This document shows, in pieces, positions 1-7,009 of a stretch of DNA of 47,079 bases. Position 1 is the stretch's first letter, and each line of letters begins with the position of its first letter. The notes beneath the pieces were generated by a model that worked only from the letters and a program-made list of their open reading frames with translations, was not told where the DNA came from and searched no databases. Position numbers and translations under genes: made by a program. The DNA is from Lachnospiraceae bacterium (lineage in GTDB: Bacteria; Bacillota; Clostridia; Lachnospirales; Lachnospiraceae): NCBI GenBank assembly GCA_021205385.1, contig JAJPXQ010000123.1:1-47079 (forward strand), read 5' to 3'.

Positions 1-65
1 GCTTTATGCGGCCTGCAGGGTTATTTTTCTCTATTCAACTGTCAAACACCCGTGATGAAAAGAAG

Positions 66-1808: not shown

Positions 1809-1868
1809 AAATTCTGCCGAGCGCGCAGGCTTTATGAAAATTTGATGAAATTTTTGCTGATTTTTAAG

Positions 1869-1896
1869 TTTACAACGGCTGTATTTTATGTATAAT
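1869..1896 (+). promoter_or_regulatory. Sigma-A-type promoter of the type III toxin-antitoxin locus
   Basis: A TTTACA -35 (1869-1874) is separated by 16 bases from a perfect TATAAT -10 (1891-1896). Transcription would start near 1903, about 26 bases before the first antitoxin repeat. A single strong promoter ahead of the repeats is the usual layout of type III systems. Confidence 0.75.
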
Positions 1897-1928
1897 GTAA
1901 ATAGAAATCATTTTGATTTCTTCATCAC

Positions 1929-2030
1929 GAAGAGTCCTGTGACGGTTCCGACAGGACGGTAAAATAAAAGTGACCGGGTGAAGAGTCCTGTGACGGTTCC
2001 GACAGGACGGTAAAATAAAAGTGACCGAGT
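1929..2030 (+). repeat. Two tandem 51-bp repeats (antitoxin units)
   Basis: Copy 1 is 1929-1979 and copy 2 is 1980-2030. They differ at one base only (ACCGGGT against ACCGAGT). Both start with GAAGAGTCCTGTGACGG and have an internal inverted repeat. There is no spacer between copies, so this is not a CRISPR. Confidence 0.95.
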
Positions 2031-2041
2031 GATGAGAAACG

Positions 2042-2068
2042 GTGGGAGGATTCATTCCTCCCACTTTC
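2042..2068 (+). terminator. Terminator between antitoxin repeats and toxin gene
   Basis: A perfect 9-bp stem (GTGGGAGGA 2042-2050 with TCCTCCCAC 2056-2064) and a 5-base loop are followed by TTTCT. In type III systems this terminator sets the antitoxin:toxin ratio, with occasional read-through making toxin mRNA. It ends 17 bases before the toxin start codon. Confidence 0.8.
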
Positions 2069-2084
2069 TACAGGGAAACGCATT

Positions 2085-2579
2085 ATGAAAATAAAAGACG
2101 AATTTGATTATCAGGTGCTGAACCTGACAGATGCGTTTTTTGATGCCTATTCTGATCCCCCTTATAAAGAAATTGCGAGAAAGAAAAATCGCCCATATGC
2201 CTGTCTGCTGATTCAGTCGCATTATGGTTATTTTATAGCCATTCCCTATCGAAGTCATATTAACCACAAATATGCGTACCGATTTAAAAAGAGCAGGCGT
2301 TCGCAGAGAGCCAGATCAGGTCTGGACTATAGTAAAGCGATCATTATCACAAATGTGGATTATATAGGGGCGGAAGATGCGATTATCGATCAGGATGAGT
2401 ACAAGGAAACGCGTGACAATATAAAATACATACGGAATGATGTTGTTCGGTATATTGACAATTATGTCGATCATCTGAACGGTACTCGCATTGTCTACGA
2501 TGAGATCGAATTTTCCCGTGTCTATCGGTTTTCCACATTACCGTATTTTCATAAAGAGCTGGGGATTGCCACGGCATAA
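2085..2579 (+). CDS. Type III toxin-antitoxin endoribonuclease toxin (ToxN/CptN/TenpN-like)
   Basis: A 164-residue basic protein of the size typical for ToxN/AbiQ, CptN and TenpN toxins (about 150-180). Features that look like the CptN/TenpN branch are an N-terminal KKNRPYACLLI strand, then IPYRSHINHKYAYRF, the block SGLDYSKAIII, and a helical middle EYKETRDNIKYI. The family consists of sequence-specific endoribonucleases with a Kid/MazF-like fold that cut mRNA in the cytoplasm and are held inactive by the repeat RNA. The start has AGGGA 8 bases upstream. The decisive support is context: promoter, tandem repeats, terminator and toxin in the canonical order. Assignment to CptIN rather than TenpIN is tentative. 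Several members defend against phage by abortive infection; whether this one does is unknown. Confidence 0.82.
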   Translation: MKIKDEFDYQVLNLTDAFFDAYSDPPYKEIARKKNRPYACLLIQSHYGYFIAIPYRSHINHKYAYRFKKSRRSQRARSGLDYSKAIIITNVDYIGAEDAIIDQDEYKETRDNIKYIRNDVVRYIDNYVDHLNGTRIVYDEIEFSRVYRFSTLPYFHKELGIATA

Positions 2580-2586
2580 TTGACAG

Positions 2587-2612
2587 TCGTTTTCAAATGA
2601 GTCTGAAAACGA
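2587..2612 (+). terminator. Possible terminator after the toxin gene
   Basis: TCGTTTTCA (2587-2595) pairs perfectly with TGAAAACGA (2604-2612) seven bases after the toxin stop codon. No good T-run follows, so termination here is uncertain. Confidence 0.35.
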
Positions 2613-2644
2613 TTACAAAATTTGTTGCAAGCCTCCTGACCTGA

Positions 2645-4084
2645 AATAAAATCCGCAGCTGGAGCCATACGCAGTTCAGCGCTGGTTCCCCGCTTTATCA
2701 GAATGTGACGGTGGGCGGACAGACGCCGGATAAGAAGGATGCAGTTAATATGATGAGCTACCTGATCCTCCGGAGCGTAGCACAGACGAGGCTGCCGCAG
2801 CCGAACCTGACGGTGCGCTATCACGCAGGGCTGAGCGACGACTTTATGAACGAGGCGATTGAGGTGGTAAAGCTTGGCTTCGGCATGCCGGCCTTCAACA
2901 ATGATGAGATCATTATTCCGTCTTTTATTGATCGTGGCGTGAAGGAAGAGGACGCTTACAATTACAGTGCGATCGGCTGCGTTGAGACCGCTGTGCCGGG
3001 GAAATGGGGCTATCGCTGCACGGGTATGAGCTTCCTTAATTTCCCGAAATCATTTCTGATCGCTCTGAACGACGGCGTTGATCCGGCCTCAGGGATGAAA
3101 TTGATGGACGGAGCGGGACATTTTACTGATATGACAAGTTATGACCAGGTGAAGGCCGCCTGGGACAAGATTATCAAAGAGTTTACCCGGCAGAGCGTGA
3201 TCATAGAGAACGCCTGCGATATGGTGCTGGAGGAGGATGTACCGGATGTGCTCTGTTCTGCGCTCTGCGAAGACTGCATCGGCAGAGGCCTGACCCTGAA
3301 GGAAGGCGGGGCGGTTTACGACTTTATCAGCGGCCTTCAGGTGGGCATTGCGAATCTGGCGGACTCCATGGCGGCAATCAAAAAGCTGGTCTTCGATGAG
3401 AAGAAGCTGACGACGAAGCAACTCTGGGATGCGCTGCTGTCCGACTTTGCGGGCGAGGAGGGTGAACGAATCCGGAAGATGCTGATTGAGGAGGCGCCGA
3501 AGTATGGCAACGACGACGACTATGTTGATCAGCTTGTGGTAGAAGCCTACGCGACCTATATCGAGGAGATCAAGAAGTATCCTAATACCCGTTTTGGGCG
3601 CGGGCCGATCGGAGGCATCCGCTACGCGGGAACTTCTTCAATCTCTGCCAATGTAGGGCAGGGAAAAGGTACACTCGCCACACCGGACGGCCGTCATGCC
3701 GGCGAGCCGCTCGCGGAGGGCTGTTCCCCCAGCCACTCGATGGACCAGTGTGGTCCCACGGCGGTCTTCAAGTCTGTTTCGAAGCTGGATACCCGCGCTA
3801 TCACGGGTGGCGTTCTGCTGAATCAGAAAGTGACGCCGCAGCTTCTTTCGAAGGAAGAGAATAAGACGAAGCTGATCGCATTGCTGCGGACATTCTTTAA
3901 CCGTCTTCACGGCTATCATGTGCAGTACAACGTCGTGTCGAGGGAGACTCTGCTGGATGCGCAGATCCACCCGGAGGACCACAGAGACCTGATCGTACGT
4001 GTGGCGGGCTACAGCGCGTTTTTCAACGTACTTTCCCGACAGACACAGGATGATATTATTGCGAGGACAGAGCAGATTCTGTAA
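2645..4084 (+). pseudogene. 5'-truncated glycyl radical enzyme (pyruvate formate-lyase/diol dehydratase family)
   Basis: The open frame begins right after an in-frame TGA at 2642-2644 and reads as the C-terminal half of a glycyl radical enzyme, joining at LYQNVTVGGQTPD. Full-length relatives have about 780-850 residues; about 480 are left here. The catalytic cysteine region is intact (SAIGCVE), as is the glycyl radical loop near the C-terminus (RVAGYSAFF). There is no plausible start: the first candidate (GTG at 2705) has no ribosome site and lies inside the conserved fold. No activating enzyme is nearby. The N-terminal half of the barrel is missing, so it is most likely a remnant left by a deletion or insertion that brought in the toxin-antitoxin locus. 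The substrate type cannot be told from this part. Confidence 0.8.
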
Positions 4085-4092
4085 AAATTATA

Positions 4093-4142
4093 CCCAAAGA
4101 GAGCTGCCACGGTTTTACGGCGGCTCTCTTTGGGCGTTTTTT
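4093..4142 (+). terminator. Intrinsic terminator after the glycyl radical enzyme remnant
   Basis: A 16-base arm (4093-4108) pairs with 4119-4134 almost perfectly and is followed by CG and six T residues. The stem core resembles the terminator at 66-95. Confidence 0.92.
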
Positions 4143-4194: not shown

Positions 4195-4372
4195 AAATTG
4201 AATTTCCGGTTTGAGAACCGGACGTTGCAAGTTCCGCAAGGATTAATAGAGAAACCGGTGAAAGTCCGGTACGGTCCCGCCACTGTGAAAGGGAGTCACG
4301 AAGCAGATGAGTCACTGGATTATATATCTGGGAAGACGCTTTGAGACGCTGAACTTGAGTCAGGAGAACTGC
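4195..4372 (+). promoter_or_regulatory. Cobalamin (B12) riboswitch aptamer
   Basis: The hallmark elements are present in order: the GGTGAAAGTCCGGTACGG segment (from 4258), the CCGCCACTGTG core (GCCACTG at 4279-4285), a GGGAAG segment and the B12 box AGTCAGGAGAACTGC at 4358-4372, which matches the consensus rGYCMGGAGaCCkGC closely. A hairpin CCGGTT/AACCGG sits at the 5' end. It binds adenosylcobalamin or a related cobamide and controls the downstream P-type ATPase gene. The 5' boundary is approximate. Confidence 0.93.
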
Positions 4373-4429
4373 TTGTAATTGATCGCTGAATGATTCTTAC
4401 GATGGATAAGAAGCAGTTTTTCTTTTGTT
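4367..4429 (+). terminator. Riboswitch expression platform: regulated intrinsic terminator
   Basis: AACTGCTT (4367-4374) pairs with AAGCAGTT (4411-4418), with an internal TTCTTA/TAAGAA hairpin, and is followed by TTTCTTTTGTTT. The 5' arm overlaps the B12 box, so aptamer folding and the terminator are coupled. This suggests transcription termination control, with the usual sense being off when cobalamin is bound. The sense was not tested. Confidence 0.75.
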
Positions 4430-4504
4430 TAAATTTCTTCCGTTCTTCCTATTCCCATAAGAACCAGACAAGTGAATAAAAATGAATGCAAAGAGGGTAT
4501 GAAA

Positions 4505-7009
4505 ATGGCGACACCAGACGAGTTGAAGCAGCACGAGGACGCATGTGGCTGTGGCGAGGACCATGGCCATAAGCATGAACATGATCACGGAGACGCATGC
4601 GGCTGCGGAGAAGACCACGGCCACGCGCATGAACATGATCATGGAGATGAGTGCGGCTGCGGCGAGGACCATGGTCATGAGCATGACCACGAGCATGGGG
4701 ACGAGTGTGGCTGCGGCCACGACCATGGCCATGAGCATGCGCACAGTCATGTGCCGGGACATCCGGACGACTGCGAGTGTGAGCTCTGCCATCCGCACGA
4801 GGACTACTGCGACGTGTGCGGCGAGAGCCTTGCGAACTGCACCTGTGACATGCCGGACGCGACGAATAAGAAGCGCGTCTACATTCTCGAAAATTTAGGC
4901 TGTGCGAACTGTGCGGCGAAGATGGAGGCGAAGATCAAGGCGCTGCCGGATGTGGATTACGCGACGATCACCTATTCCACGAAGCAGCTGCGTGTCTCCG
5001 CGCCCGACCCGGATGCGCTGCTTCCGGTTATTCAGGAGATCTGTACGGCGATCGAATCCGAGGTTGTCGTAAAGAAGCGCGAGCGCAAGGTGGCCGCCGC
5101 GGCTCCGGTGCAGGCGGTCGATCCGGAGAGCCGGAAGAAGAAAAAAGAATTCCCGAAGGAGAAGCTGGAGCTCCTGGGTATCATCCTGGGCGCGGTGCTC
5201 TTCCTTGTTGTAGAAGTCATTCATGAGACCAGCGGTGTGGAGGAGCTTCCGCTTCCCTTGATCATCCTGTGTCTCGTTGCCTATGTGATACTGGGCGGCA
5301 AGATCGTCCTGACGGCGCTGAAAAATATCCCGAAGGGACAGGTCTTTGACGAGAACTTCCTGATGACGATCGCGACGGTGGGCGCCCTGATCATTGGCAG
5401 CTATACCGAGGCGGTCGGAGTCATCCTGTTCTACCGCATCGGCGAGTACTTTGAGGACCGCGCGGTGGAGAACAGCCGCAAGGCCATCATGGACGCGGTG
5501 GACATGCGTCCGGATGTGGTGAACCTGGTGGTCGGTGAAGAGGTAAAGGTCATCGACGCAGAGAGCGCCGTAGTCGGCGATATCCTTCTGGTGCGCCCGG
5601 GCGACCGGATCCCGCTGGACGGCGTCATCGTCGAGGGCGAGAGCCGTATCGACACCTCGCCGGTGACCGGCGAGCCGGTGCCGGTCGCCGCAGGCTACGG
5701 CGACGAGGTGACCTCCGGCTGCGTGAACACCTCCGGTGTGATCAAGATCCGTGTAGAGAAGCTGCTGGAGGAATCCATGGTGACGAAGATTCTTGACTCC
5801 GTGGAGAACGCGGCGGCGACCAAGCCGCAGATGGAGCGCTTTATCACCCGCTTCGCGCGTATTTATACGCCGGCGGTTGTGGGTATCGCGCTGGTGACGG
5901 CGATTATCCCGTCCCTGTTTACCGGAAACTGGTATCACTGGGTTTACACGGCTCTGACCTTCCTGGTCATCAGCTGCCCCTGCGCGCTGGTGCTCAGCGT
6001 GCCGCTGGCCTTCTTCTCCGGCATCGGAGCGGGCTCGAAGCTCGGTATCCTCTTTAAGGGTGGCAACTCTCTGGAGGCGATCAAGAACGTGACCACCGTG
6101 ATCATGGATAAGACCGGCACGATCACGAAGGGTAATTTTGAGGTGCAGGAAGCGGTTCCGACAAAGGGTGTGGATGCGGACAAGCTGCTGGCCTTAAGCG
6201 CGGCCTGTGAGATCAACTCCACGCATCCGATTGGAAACAGTATTATTGCTTACGCGAAGGAAAAGAAGATTGATATTGAACGCCCCTCGAAGGTCGAGGA
6301 GATCGCCGGAAAGGGTATCCGCGCGGTCGTGGCGGACGGTGAGGTGCTGTGCGGCAACCGCAAGCTCATGCGGCAGTTCGAGGTAGACCTCGGGGACTAC
6401 GCGCCGGAGAAATTCGGCACGGAGGTGCTGACAGCGTTGAATGGAAAGTTCATTGGCCATCTGGTCATTGCGGATACGATCAAGGAGGAATCCCCGGCCG
6501 CGATCAAAGCGCTGCATGATCTCGGCATCCATACGGCGATGCTGACCGGCGACGGCGAAGAGAGCGCGCTGGATGTGGCGAAGCAGACCGGCATCGAGGA
6601 AGTGCATGCGAAGCTGATGCCACAGGATAAGCTGACACAGCTCAGCGAGATCCGGAAGCGCAACGGCGCGGTCATGTTCGTCGGCGACGGTATCAACGAC
6701 GCTCCGGTGCTGGCCGGCGCGGACGTCGGCGCGGCGATGGGCAGCGGCGCGGACGCGGCGATCGAGGCGGCGGACGTGGTGTTCATGAACTCCAGTCTGA
6801 CCTCCATTGCGGACTCCATCGGAATCGCCCGGAACGCCATGCGCGTGGCGATGCAGAACGTGGTCTTCGCCCTCATCATCAAGGCAATGGTTATCGTGCT
6901 CGGTCTTCTGGGAATGGCGAGCATGTGGTTTGCGGTATTCGCGGACTCCGGCGTCGCAGTGCTCTGCGTGCTGAACTCGGTCCGTGTATTATATAGATAC
7001 AAGAAATAG
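4505..7009 (+). CDS. P1B-type heavy-metal ATPase (ZntA/CadA-like) with Cys/His-repeat N-terminus
   Basis: A roughly 834-residue integral membrane P-type ATPase. Residues 12-83 are four 18-residue Cys/His repeats, followed by a Cys-rich stretch (CECELC, CDVC, CTC) and a heavy-metal-associated domain with GCANCAAK. Then come the membrane helices, the CPC metal site (SCPCALVLSVP), the phosphorylation motif DKTGT, the HP motif (STHPIGN) and GDGINDAPVL. The last helices keep the Lys and Asp typical of Zn/Cd/Pb (P1B-2) pumps (IIKAMV, FADSGVAVL), so Zn2+, Cd2+ or Co2+ are likely ions. The start at 4505 fits AAGAGGG 8 bases upstream; an ATG at 4499 is too close to it. It is controlled by a cobalamin riboswitch, which suggests a link to cobalt or B12 metabolism. 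Known members export metal; direction here is not shown by sequence. Confidence 0.92.
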   Translation: MATPDELKQHEDACGCGEDHGHKHEHDHGDACGCGEDHGHAHEHDHGDECGCGEDHGHEHDHEHGDECGCGHDHGHEHAHSHVPGHPDDCECELCHPHEDYCDVCGESLANCTCDMPDATNKKRVYILENLGCANCAAKMEAKIKALPDVDYATITYSTKQLRVSAPDPDALLPVIQEICTAIESEVVVKKRERKVAAAAPVQAVDPESRKKKKEFPKEKLELLGIILGAVLFLVVEVIHETSGVEELPLPLIILCLVAYVILGGKIVLTALKNIPKGQVFDENFLMTIATVGALIIGSYTEAVGVILFYRIGEYFEDRAVENSRKAIMDAVDMRPDVVNLVVGEEVKVIDAESAVVGDILLVRPGDRIPLDGVIVEGESRIDTSPVTGEPVPVAAGYGDEVTSGCVNTSGVIKIRVEKLLEESMVTKILDSVENAAATKPQMERFITRFARIYTPAVVGIALVTAIIPSLFTGNWYHWVYTALTFLVISCPCALVLSVPLAFFSGIGAGSKLGILFKGGNSLEAIKNVTTVIMDKTGTITKGNFEVQEAVPTKGVDADKLLALSAACEINSTHPIGNSIIAYAKEKKIDIERPSKVEEIAGKGIRAVVADGEVLCGNRKLMRQFEVDLGDYAPEKFGTEVLTALNGKFIGHLVIADTIKEESPAAIKALHDLGIHTAMLTGDGEESALDVAKQTGIEEVHAKLMPQDKLTQLSEIRKRNGAVMFVGDGINDAPVLAGADVGAAMGSGADAAIEAADVVFMNSSLTSIADSIGIARNAMRVAMQNVVFALIIKAMVIVLGLLGMASMWFAVFADSGVAVLCVLNSVRVLYRYKK
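4538..4753 (+). repeat. Four in-frame 54-bp repeats encoding Cys/His metal-binding units
   Basis: Exactly four 54-bp units encode D-(A/E)-C-G-C-G-(E/H)-D-H-G-H-x-H-x-x-x-H-(G/V). Each unit supplies two cysteines and four or more histidines. Units 1-3 are more alike than unit 4, consistent with local tandem duplication. They would buffer or sense soft divalent metals at the cytoplasmic N-terminus of the pump. Confidence 0.92.

What the first reader, a model, noticed from the sequence alone, without database searches (positions are those of the whole stretch)
1869..2579. Complete type III toxin-antitoxin locus with only two 51-bp repeats
The sequence shows in 710 bases a strong promoter, two 51-bp tandem repeats with one mismatch, a perfect intrinsic terminator and a 164-residue ToxN/CptN-like gene with its own ribosome site. 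Known type III systems (ToxIN, CptIN, TenpIN) have exactly this order, with the toxin processing the RNA and being inhibited by it. The 51-base unit is longer than the ToxI unit and has a hairpin plus a second pairing (CGGT/ACCG) that could give a pseudoknot of new shape. The gene lies beside a nuclease-like AAA gene and a broken enzyme gene, a setting typical of accessory DNA; a phage defence role is possible.
Basis: partly seen in the sequence, partly recalled or inferred. Interest (0 to 1): 0.85.

Follow-up and report, generated by a model that had tools for sequence, protein, structure and literature searches.

The report
TenpIN-type RNA-guarded toxin gene pair
A gut bacterium carries a small, apparently movable gene pair in which two copies of a knotted RNA probably hold an RNA-cutting toxin in check; it belongs to a known family of such pairs, and its relatives show how that family's RNA is built and how it decays.

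Summary
The 164-residue protein (2085-2579) is a TenpIN-family type III toxin by NCBIfam NF047358 (168.4 bits, cut-off 90). Upstream are a near-consensus promoter, two 51-nt repeats with one mismatch, and a GC-rich hairpin whose U-tract is weak, not perfect. Length and copy number are ordinary: tenpIN repeats in one published table are 41-55 nt, 2.1-3 copies (PMC6315513).

Of 64 loci examined, 26 (window included) carry this antitoxin family, 45 units. Stem 1 covaries at 5 of 7 pairs. The CGGU/ACCG loop pairing hardly varies here but recurs with other letters in other TenpI arrays, which supports an H-type pseudoknot. A 5' hairpin and a leader-trailer helix recur too.

An antitoxin-first search found the RNA in 25 of 299 genomes. 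All 9 with an open toxin frame have two units; of 16 without, 13 have one (Fisher p 1.1e-4; 4.6e-4 if one doubtful case is moved). The 0.7-0.8 kb cassette sits among other neighbours in two close relatives; the AAA gene and broken enzyme look like bystanders.

Verdict: new member of a known kind; phage defence untested.

The parts
1869..1896 (+). promoter, TTTACA-16-TATAAT
   Evidence: scan, 11 of 12
1903..1921 (+). 5' hairpin of the antitoxin RNA (AGAAATCA/TGATTTCT); its last base is shared with the closing helix
   Evidence: 8-pair stem here; mean longest stem 6.6 pairs in 25 distinct leaders against 4.8 in mononucleotide shuffles; 4-5 pairs only in L007, L010, L018, L019, L034, L053, L055
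1921..1928 (+). 5' strand of the proposed helix that closes the array (TTCATCAC)
   Evidence: pairs with 2029-2036; matched leader-trailer pairs better than mismatched in 25 distinct loci; in the window the linker between the units competes almost equally
1929..1979 (+). antitoxin unit 1: stem 1 1934-1940/1951-1957, stem 2 (pseudoknot) 1943-1947/1972-1976, A-rich stretch between
   Evidence: TRF, alignment A1 and pair counts
1980..2030 (+). antitoxin unit 2: stem 1 1985-1991/2002-2008, stem 2 1994-1998/2023-2027
   Evidence: TRF
2029..2036 (+). 3' strand of the proposed closing helix (GTGATGAG); a GA(A/T)GA motif overlaps it
2042..2064 (+). terminator-like hairpin between antitoxin and toxin, weak U-tract
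   Evidence: window 2028-2080 folds at z -3.3; + strand tail fails the T rule
2085..2579 (+). TenpN toxin gene, 164 aa, probable endoribonuclease
   Evidence: NCBIfam NF047358 168.4 bits against cut-off 90
1844..2644 (+). cassette shared at about 95% identity with G397 (1844-2644) and G401 (1859-2568) in other genomic places

Best explanation
A TenpIN type III toxin-antitoxin cassette. One promoter makes a short RNA: a 5' hairpin, two 51-nt units, then a leaky terminator. Each unit folds as an H-type pseudoknot, stem 1 with a loop (CGGU) that pairs with ACCG across an A-rich stretch (stem 1 shown by covariation; stem 2 supported through other TenpI arrays). A helix between leader and trailer may close the array (supported by comparison, role inferred). 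Occasional read-through makes the TenpN toxin (inferred from gene order and characterised relatives). TenpN, an endoribonuclease by family, probably cuts the precursor near the conserved GA(A/U)GA linker and is held inactive in a complex with the freed units (inferred). If transcription stops, as in element loss or phage takeover, the RNA decays first and the toxin cuts cellular RNA (inferred from ToxIN and TenpIN precedent). The cassette has moved between sites, and in relatives that have lost a working toxin the array is mostly down to one unit (shown as a pattern; order of events inferred).
For: NCBIfam TenpIN equivalog far over its cut-off. Canonical order. 26 of 64 examined loci, the window's own included, carry the same unit family. 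Stem 1: 99.3% of cells paired, 5 of 7 pairs changed on both sides; whole structure 98.9% of cells paired against 85.1% in shuffles and covariation score 0.334 against 0.099, 0 of 500 shuffles reaching either. In other TenpI arrays stem 2 reads GAGC/GCTC, GGGC/GTCC, GGATA/TATCC, AGGCT/AGCCT or GGG/CCC; in 15 of 18 such loci the best pseudoknot score is reached by at most 1 of 40 dinucleotide shuffles. Leader-trailer pairing: matched mean -9.9 against mismatched -7.5 kcal/mol, 0 of 2000 permutations (of the longest helix) as good. GA(A/T)GA after stem 2 in 41 of 45 units, 3.6 expected by shuffling. Antitoxin-first set of 25 genomes: open toxin frame, 9 two-unit and 0 one-unit; none, 3 and 13.
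Against: No experiment. Two of the five measures are weak or flat: pairs changed on both sides 5 against 4.0 (23 of 500 shuffles), further pair types 9 against 9.0 (352 of 500). Stem 2 barely varies within this subfamily; the rival hairpin is almost as well kept (96.8% of cells, against 98.5%), and L010 and L019 keep the rival's GGT while their loop has changed (both have broken toxins). A single unit folded alone is no more stable than shuffles (z -0.7, -1.3), and the minimum-energy fold of the array pairs arms of different units (that program cannot draw pseudoknots). Leader-trailer pairing is 5 pairs or fewer in L018, L035, L037, L055; against the linker between units the trailer is the better partner in 16 of 19 two-unit loci, 12 by at least 1 kcal/mol, and in the window only -12.2 against -11.8. 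Related loci are not independent. L002 and L056 pair an open toxin frame with one unit.
Confidence: 0.92

Rival explanations
1. A decayed or silent TenpIN remnant: sequence intact here but the system is no longer working, like many relatives.
For: 16 of 25 antitoxin-bearing genomes have no open toxin frame beside the array; the 95% identical copy in G397 is split by a stop in the same frame; the U-tract is weak.
Against: Here the ORF is full length and has the five columns invariant in A3 (R36, P54, R56, D81, L152), two units whose stems pair, and a near-consensus promoter.
Confidence: 0.15
2. The array is a regulatory leader or attenuator of the downstream gene and not an antitoxin.
For: Structured RNA followed by a hairpin and then the gene.
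Against: Tandem units, toxin family membership and the link between toxin loss and unit loss fit an antitoxin; no Rfam regulator reaches its threshold there.
Confidence: 0.03
3. The locus forms one defence island with the AAA-ATPase/PDDEXK gene.
For: They are adjacent, 1-1808 and 1869-2579.
Against: In G397 and G401 the cassette has other neighbours; the AAA gene has diverged relatives elsewhere in the same genome (C74 71%, C162 65%); PADLOC finds nothing in either protein at E up to 1. Co-occurrence over many genomes was not counted.
Confidence: 0.04

Closest known systems
TenpIN family (type III toxin-antitoxin, named after Photorhabdus; NCBIfam NF047358)
   Same: Toxin over the curated cut-off; promoter, two-unit array, hairpin, toxin order; tenpIN unit lengths 55 (2.1 copies), 53 (2.1) and 41 (3) in PMC6315513 Table 3 (passages seen).
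   Different: The antitoxin belongs to a subfamily with CGGU/ACCG stem 2 that matched no Rfam family in the window or in L002, L003, L054; a leader-trailer helix is not described in the passages I read.
CptIN of Eubacterium rectale (PDB 4RMO)
   Same: About two units, H-type pseudoknot, long A-rich loop (PMC4627078 passages; 45/2.1 in PMC6315513); weak toxin similarity (E 0.048).
   Different: 45-nt unit; the window protein does not match the CptIN model at E up to 1.
ToxIN / AbiQ
   Same: Operon order and presumed mechanism (PMC5086642 passages).
   Different: 34-36 nt units, 2.8-5.5 copies; the window protein does not match Pfam ToxN_toxin.
Rfam RF02925 '6A RNA'
   Same: Matches antitoxin units of other TenpN-associated arrays in 4 of 20 loci given (L012, L041, L057, L074).
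   Different: Does not match the window's units.

Membership tests
TenpIN | toxin protein of the TenpN family | tested here: met
   NF047358 168.4 bits, cut-off 90, E 1e-49, 141 of 141 positions
TenpIN | tandem repeat array directly upstream of the toxin | tested here: met
   2.1 copies of 51 nt, 1929-2036
TenpIN | terminator-like hairpin between array and toxin | tested here: met
   hairpin 2042-2064, z -3.3; U-tract weak, so as a strict terminator it is doubtful
TenpIN | antitoxin units fold as pseudoknots | tested here: met
   comparative support only: stem 1 covaries; stem 2 through other TenpI arrays, not within the subfamily
TenpIN | toxin is an endoribonuclease that processes the array | not testable with these tools
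   needs biochemistry; the conserved linker GA(A/T)GA is only suggestive
TenpIN | RNA neutralises the toxin; abortive infection | not testable with these tools
   needs growth and phage assays
CptIN | toxin over the CptIN model NF047359 | tested here: not met
   no match for the window protein at E up to 1
ToxIN | Pfam ToxN_toxin match and short (34-39 nt) units | tested here: not met
   no match at E up to 1; unit 51 nt
known anti-phage defence systems (PADLOC) | match to a PADLOC model | tested here: not met
   0 families at E up to 1 for the toxin and for the AAA gene

The most novel reading that the evidence does not exclude
TenpI antitoxins of this subfamily are not loose repeats but a closed, capped two-unit RNA particle: a 5' hairpin, a leader-trailer helix that shuts the array, and two pseudoknots that pressure from the toxin keeps at two. 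Solitary, mostly one-unit arrays left in many genomes after toxin loss could act as anti-addiction RNAs against incoming TenpIN elements.
Probability: 0.22. Interest if true: 0.55.

Novelty: new member of a known kind. Interest (0 to 1): 0.38.

Why it matters
No solved TenpN or TenpI structure turned up: the sequence searches of the PDB gave only weak hits, and the passages read in PMC5086642 and PMC4627078 name ToxIN and CptIN structures only. The relatives gathered here give a testable pseudoknot model, a likely processing motif, a possible closing helix, and a natural experiment on why two units are kept. They also suggest that Rfam's 6A RNA is a TenpI antitoxin.

Tried and rejected
Rejected: a pseudoknot of new shape by length alone (unit length is ordinary for tenpIN). 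A simple hairpin CGGT(columns 27-30)/ACCG instead of the pseudoknot: no covariation, and its 5' side is changed in units of L054, L037 and L018 that keep the loop CGGT; but the reverse holds in L010 and L019, so within the subfamily this is a lean, not a proof. DUF5748 (below cut-off). The AAA gene as a partner.

Led nowhere: viral-contig scan with the window protein, 7 pattern matches and no relative; profile scan of viral contigs not possible; phage records held 3 weak relatives, plasmid records 104, all under 60% identity; paper searches for 6A RNA found none; the founding TenpIN paper and the structured-RNA paper are not held (both recalled by identifier).

Weak points in my own counts: one search picks the best-scoring pseudoknot of each locus; its control covers 18 loci that I chose, those outside this subfamily with a seed-profile score over about 90, with L060 left out because little upstream sequence is held; 3 of 18 failed (L014, L046, L059), and L040/L042 and L043/L044 are close pairs. 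The sub2 part (23 of 30) includes regex hits that are not true linkers. One search scores the longest helix found, which in L032 and L034 is not the CTTCGC helix. Permutations do not remove shared ancestry. Model R1 was built on units from 13 of the 25 genomes it found. 'Open toxin frame' in G096 (L011) has no ATG, GTG or TTG before the domain; moving it gives 8 and 0 against 4 and 13, p 4.6e-4, and the pooled table p 3.1e-4. L110 (G221) did not pass the pattern; that it lacks a toxin rests, and its unit. The genomes are mostly drafts.

Full report
The observation. Only the terminator is overstated: the scan reported it on the - strand only, since the + strand tail is poor in T.

The toxin. 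NCBIfam places the protein in TenpIN (NF047358, 168.4 bits, cut-off 90, full model length). Pfam and PADLOC give nothing over a cut-off. The nearest solved chains are distant: CptN 4RMO at E 0.048 by single sequence, ToxN 4ATO at E 0.19 by a 37-sequence profile. In that alignment five columns are invariant (R36, P54, R56, D81, L152) and seven nearly so.

Spread. The family model matches 28 of 397 same-family genomes at E up to 0.001, 15 over the cut-off; 21 of 392 in the order at E up to 1e-15, 16 over; 16 of 391 in the class at E up to 1e-10, 12 over. These samples overlap and each includes the window's genome. In the genus, 7 of 17 genomes, the window's included, have a DNA match to 1850-2640, some only to the array. 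The six close relatives found in genome contigs are titled Lachnospiraceae (4), Bacillota (1) and Clostridium (1). Plasmid records with a relative number 104, all under 60% identity, among them small E. coli and Salmonella plasmids; phage records 3.

The antitoxin. Of 64 loci examined (66 less two duplicates), 26 carry the window's unit family, the window's own included, 45 units in all: 19 loci with two units, 7 with one. In alignment A1 (45 units, 39 distinct), stem 1 is paired in 99.3% of cells and 5 of 7 pairs change on both sides; in some arrays the two units have different stem 1 sequences that each still pair (L004, L008, L013). Against 500 shuffles the whole structure stands out in cells paired (98.9 against 85.1%), cells changed on both sides (54 against 16.3) and covariation score (0.334 against 0.099), none reached; it does not in further pair types (9 against 9.0) and hardly in pairs changed on both sides (5 against 4.0, 23 of 500). 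Stem 2, CGGU(U)/(G)ACCG, is paired in 98.5% of cells but its only standard change is U-G to U-A at one pair, so it says little by itself. Support comes from other TenpI arrays, where the loop of a stem 1 hairpin pairs across an A-rich stretch with other letters; in 15 of 18 chosen loci at most 1 of 40 shuffles scores as well. The rival, a plain second hairpin using the CGGT after stem 1, has no covariation and 96.8% of cells paired. Its 5' side is changed in units of L054, L037 and L018 that keep the loop CGGT, while L010 and L019, beside broken toxins, show the reverse.

Folding by energy alone does not favour a single unit (z -0.7 and -1.3), and the best fold of the two-unit array pairs arms of different units (z -2.7); the program cannot draw pseudoknots.

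Two further RNA elements. A leader just upstream of unit 1 pairs with the trailer just after the last unit (window 1921-1928 with 2029-2036). Over 25 distinct loci, matched pairs average a longest helix of 6.8 pairs and -9.9 kcal/mol, mismatched 5.9 and -7.5; none of 2000 permutations reached the matched helix length, and shuffled trailers average 5.2 pairs. Types such as CTTCATCA/TGATGAAG, CTTCGC/GCGAAG, TATCGCT/AGCGATG and TCAGCT/AGCTGA occur. It is 5 pairs or fewer in L018, L035, L037 and L055. The linker between the units is a competing partner: the trailer wins in 16 of 19 two-unit loci, ties in 1, loses in 2, and in the window wins only by 0.4 kcal/mol. Upstream lies a 5' hairpin, mean longest stem 6.6 pairs against 4.8 in mononucleotide shuffles over 25 distinct leaders, 4-5 pairs only in seven of them. 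None of these tests removes shared ancestry. A GA(A/T)GA motif follows stem 2 in 41 of 45 units, 3.6 expected, and in 23 of 30 pattern hits in another TenpI subfamily, 1.8 expected; I read it as the likely processing site.

Two units and toxin loss. An antitoxin-first search with model R1 found matches at E up to 1e-4 in 25 of 299 same-family genomes, 25 different genera; units of 13 of these had gone into the model. Nine have a TenpN over the cut-off without stops beside the array, and all nine have two units. Sixteen do not: fragments or frames with a stop in G007, G113, G155 and G248, and no family match at that place in the other twelve. Three of the sixteen have two units, thirteen one; Fisher p = 1.1e-4, or 4.6e-4 if G096, whose frame lacks a usual start codon, is moved. 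Some arrays keep short, weakly scored scraps of the toxin (L098, L099, L114, L115; E 2e-7 to 0.035). Pooled with the toxin-first loci the table is 17 and 2 against 5 and 14 (p 1.9e-4). The two exceptions, L002 and L056, pair an open toxin frame with one unit. The simplest reading is that the toxin is lost first, as addiction predicts, and that the second unit is kept mainly while the toxin is there.

Mobility and neighbours. Window 1859-2568 is 95.8% identical to G401 and 1844-2644 95.3% to G397, with different flanks in all three. G397 carries a glycyl-radical enzyme with an open frame of 808 codons, 99% identical over 2645-4140 to the part that the window holds, about 20 kb from its own cassette on the same contig. 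In the window's own genome a query covering the missing 5' part matched only the window itself, at 2645-2687. So in the window a rearrangement joined the cassette end (2644) to the middle of that enzyme gene (2645). An assembly error at this junction cannot be excluded. The AAA gene has diverged relatives elsewhere in the same genome.

Comparison with the literature. One published table of gut type III loci lists tenpIN toxin/unit (copies) of 158/55 (2.1), 144/53 (2.1, twice) and 140/41 (3) (PMC6315513, passages). TenpIN of Photorhabdus aborts phage M1 in Pectobacterium and coliphages in E. coli (PMC5377504, passages). Toxin processing of the RNA and ring-like complexes are described for ToxIN and CptIN (PMC5086642, PMC4627078, PMC8860590, passages). 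The founding TenpIN paper was not held, so I cannot say that this subfamily or its pseudoknot is absent from print; the listings did not show it.

Verdict. A genuine, apparently intact TenpIN cassette: new member of a known kind, with comparative results on its RNA that go a little beyond what I found in the papers I could see.

Noticed in passing
L057 267-419, L074 843-948, L041 1331-1434, L012 1993-2044: Rfam RF02925 '6A RNA' matches antitoxin units upstream of TenpN-like toxins in 4 of 20 loci given; this suggests that 6A RNA is a TenpI antitoxin. Two paper searches on it found none.
   Followed up: partly
L020, L021, L023, L024, L066, upstream of the toxin-like gene: Distant TenpN-like proteins (41-50 bits, below cut-off) preceded by a different RNA: L020, L021, L023 and L024 share GTATGTTTAACTTCC and show no tandem repeat by my scan; L066 has a block repeated twice. 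Possibly another type III-like family.
   Followed up: no
window 1-57: The first 52-65 bases of the contig recur at 94-100% in four other contigs of the same genome (C15, C68, C72, C89): a dispersed repeat at which the assembly may break.
   Followed up: no
window 2645-4084: Glycyl-radical enzyme gene lacking its 5' part; G397 has a copy with a full-length open frame and a second one at 87% identity.
   Followed up: yes
window 4212-4390: Cobalamin riboswitch (RF00174, 107.1 bits) upstream of a long His-rich ORF (4472-7009; P-type metal ATPase by my reading, not searched) with a 54-base tandem repeat (4538-4739).
   Followed up: no
L030 (G397): The cassette copy 95% identical to the window's has its toxin split by a stop in the same frame.
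   Followed up: partly
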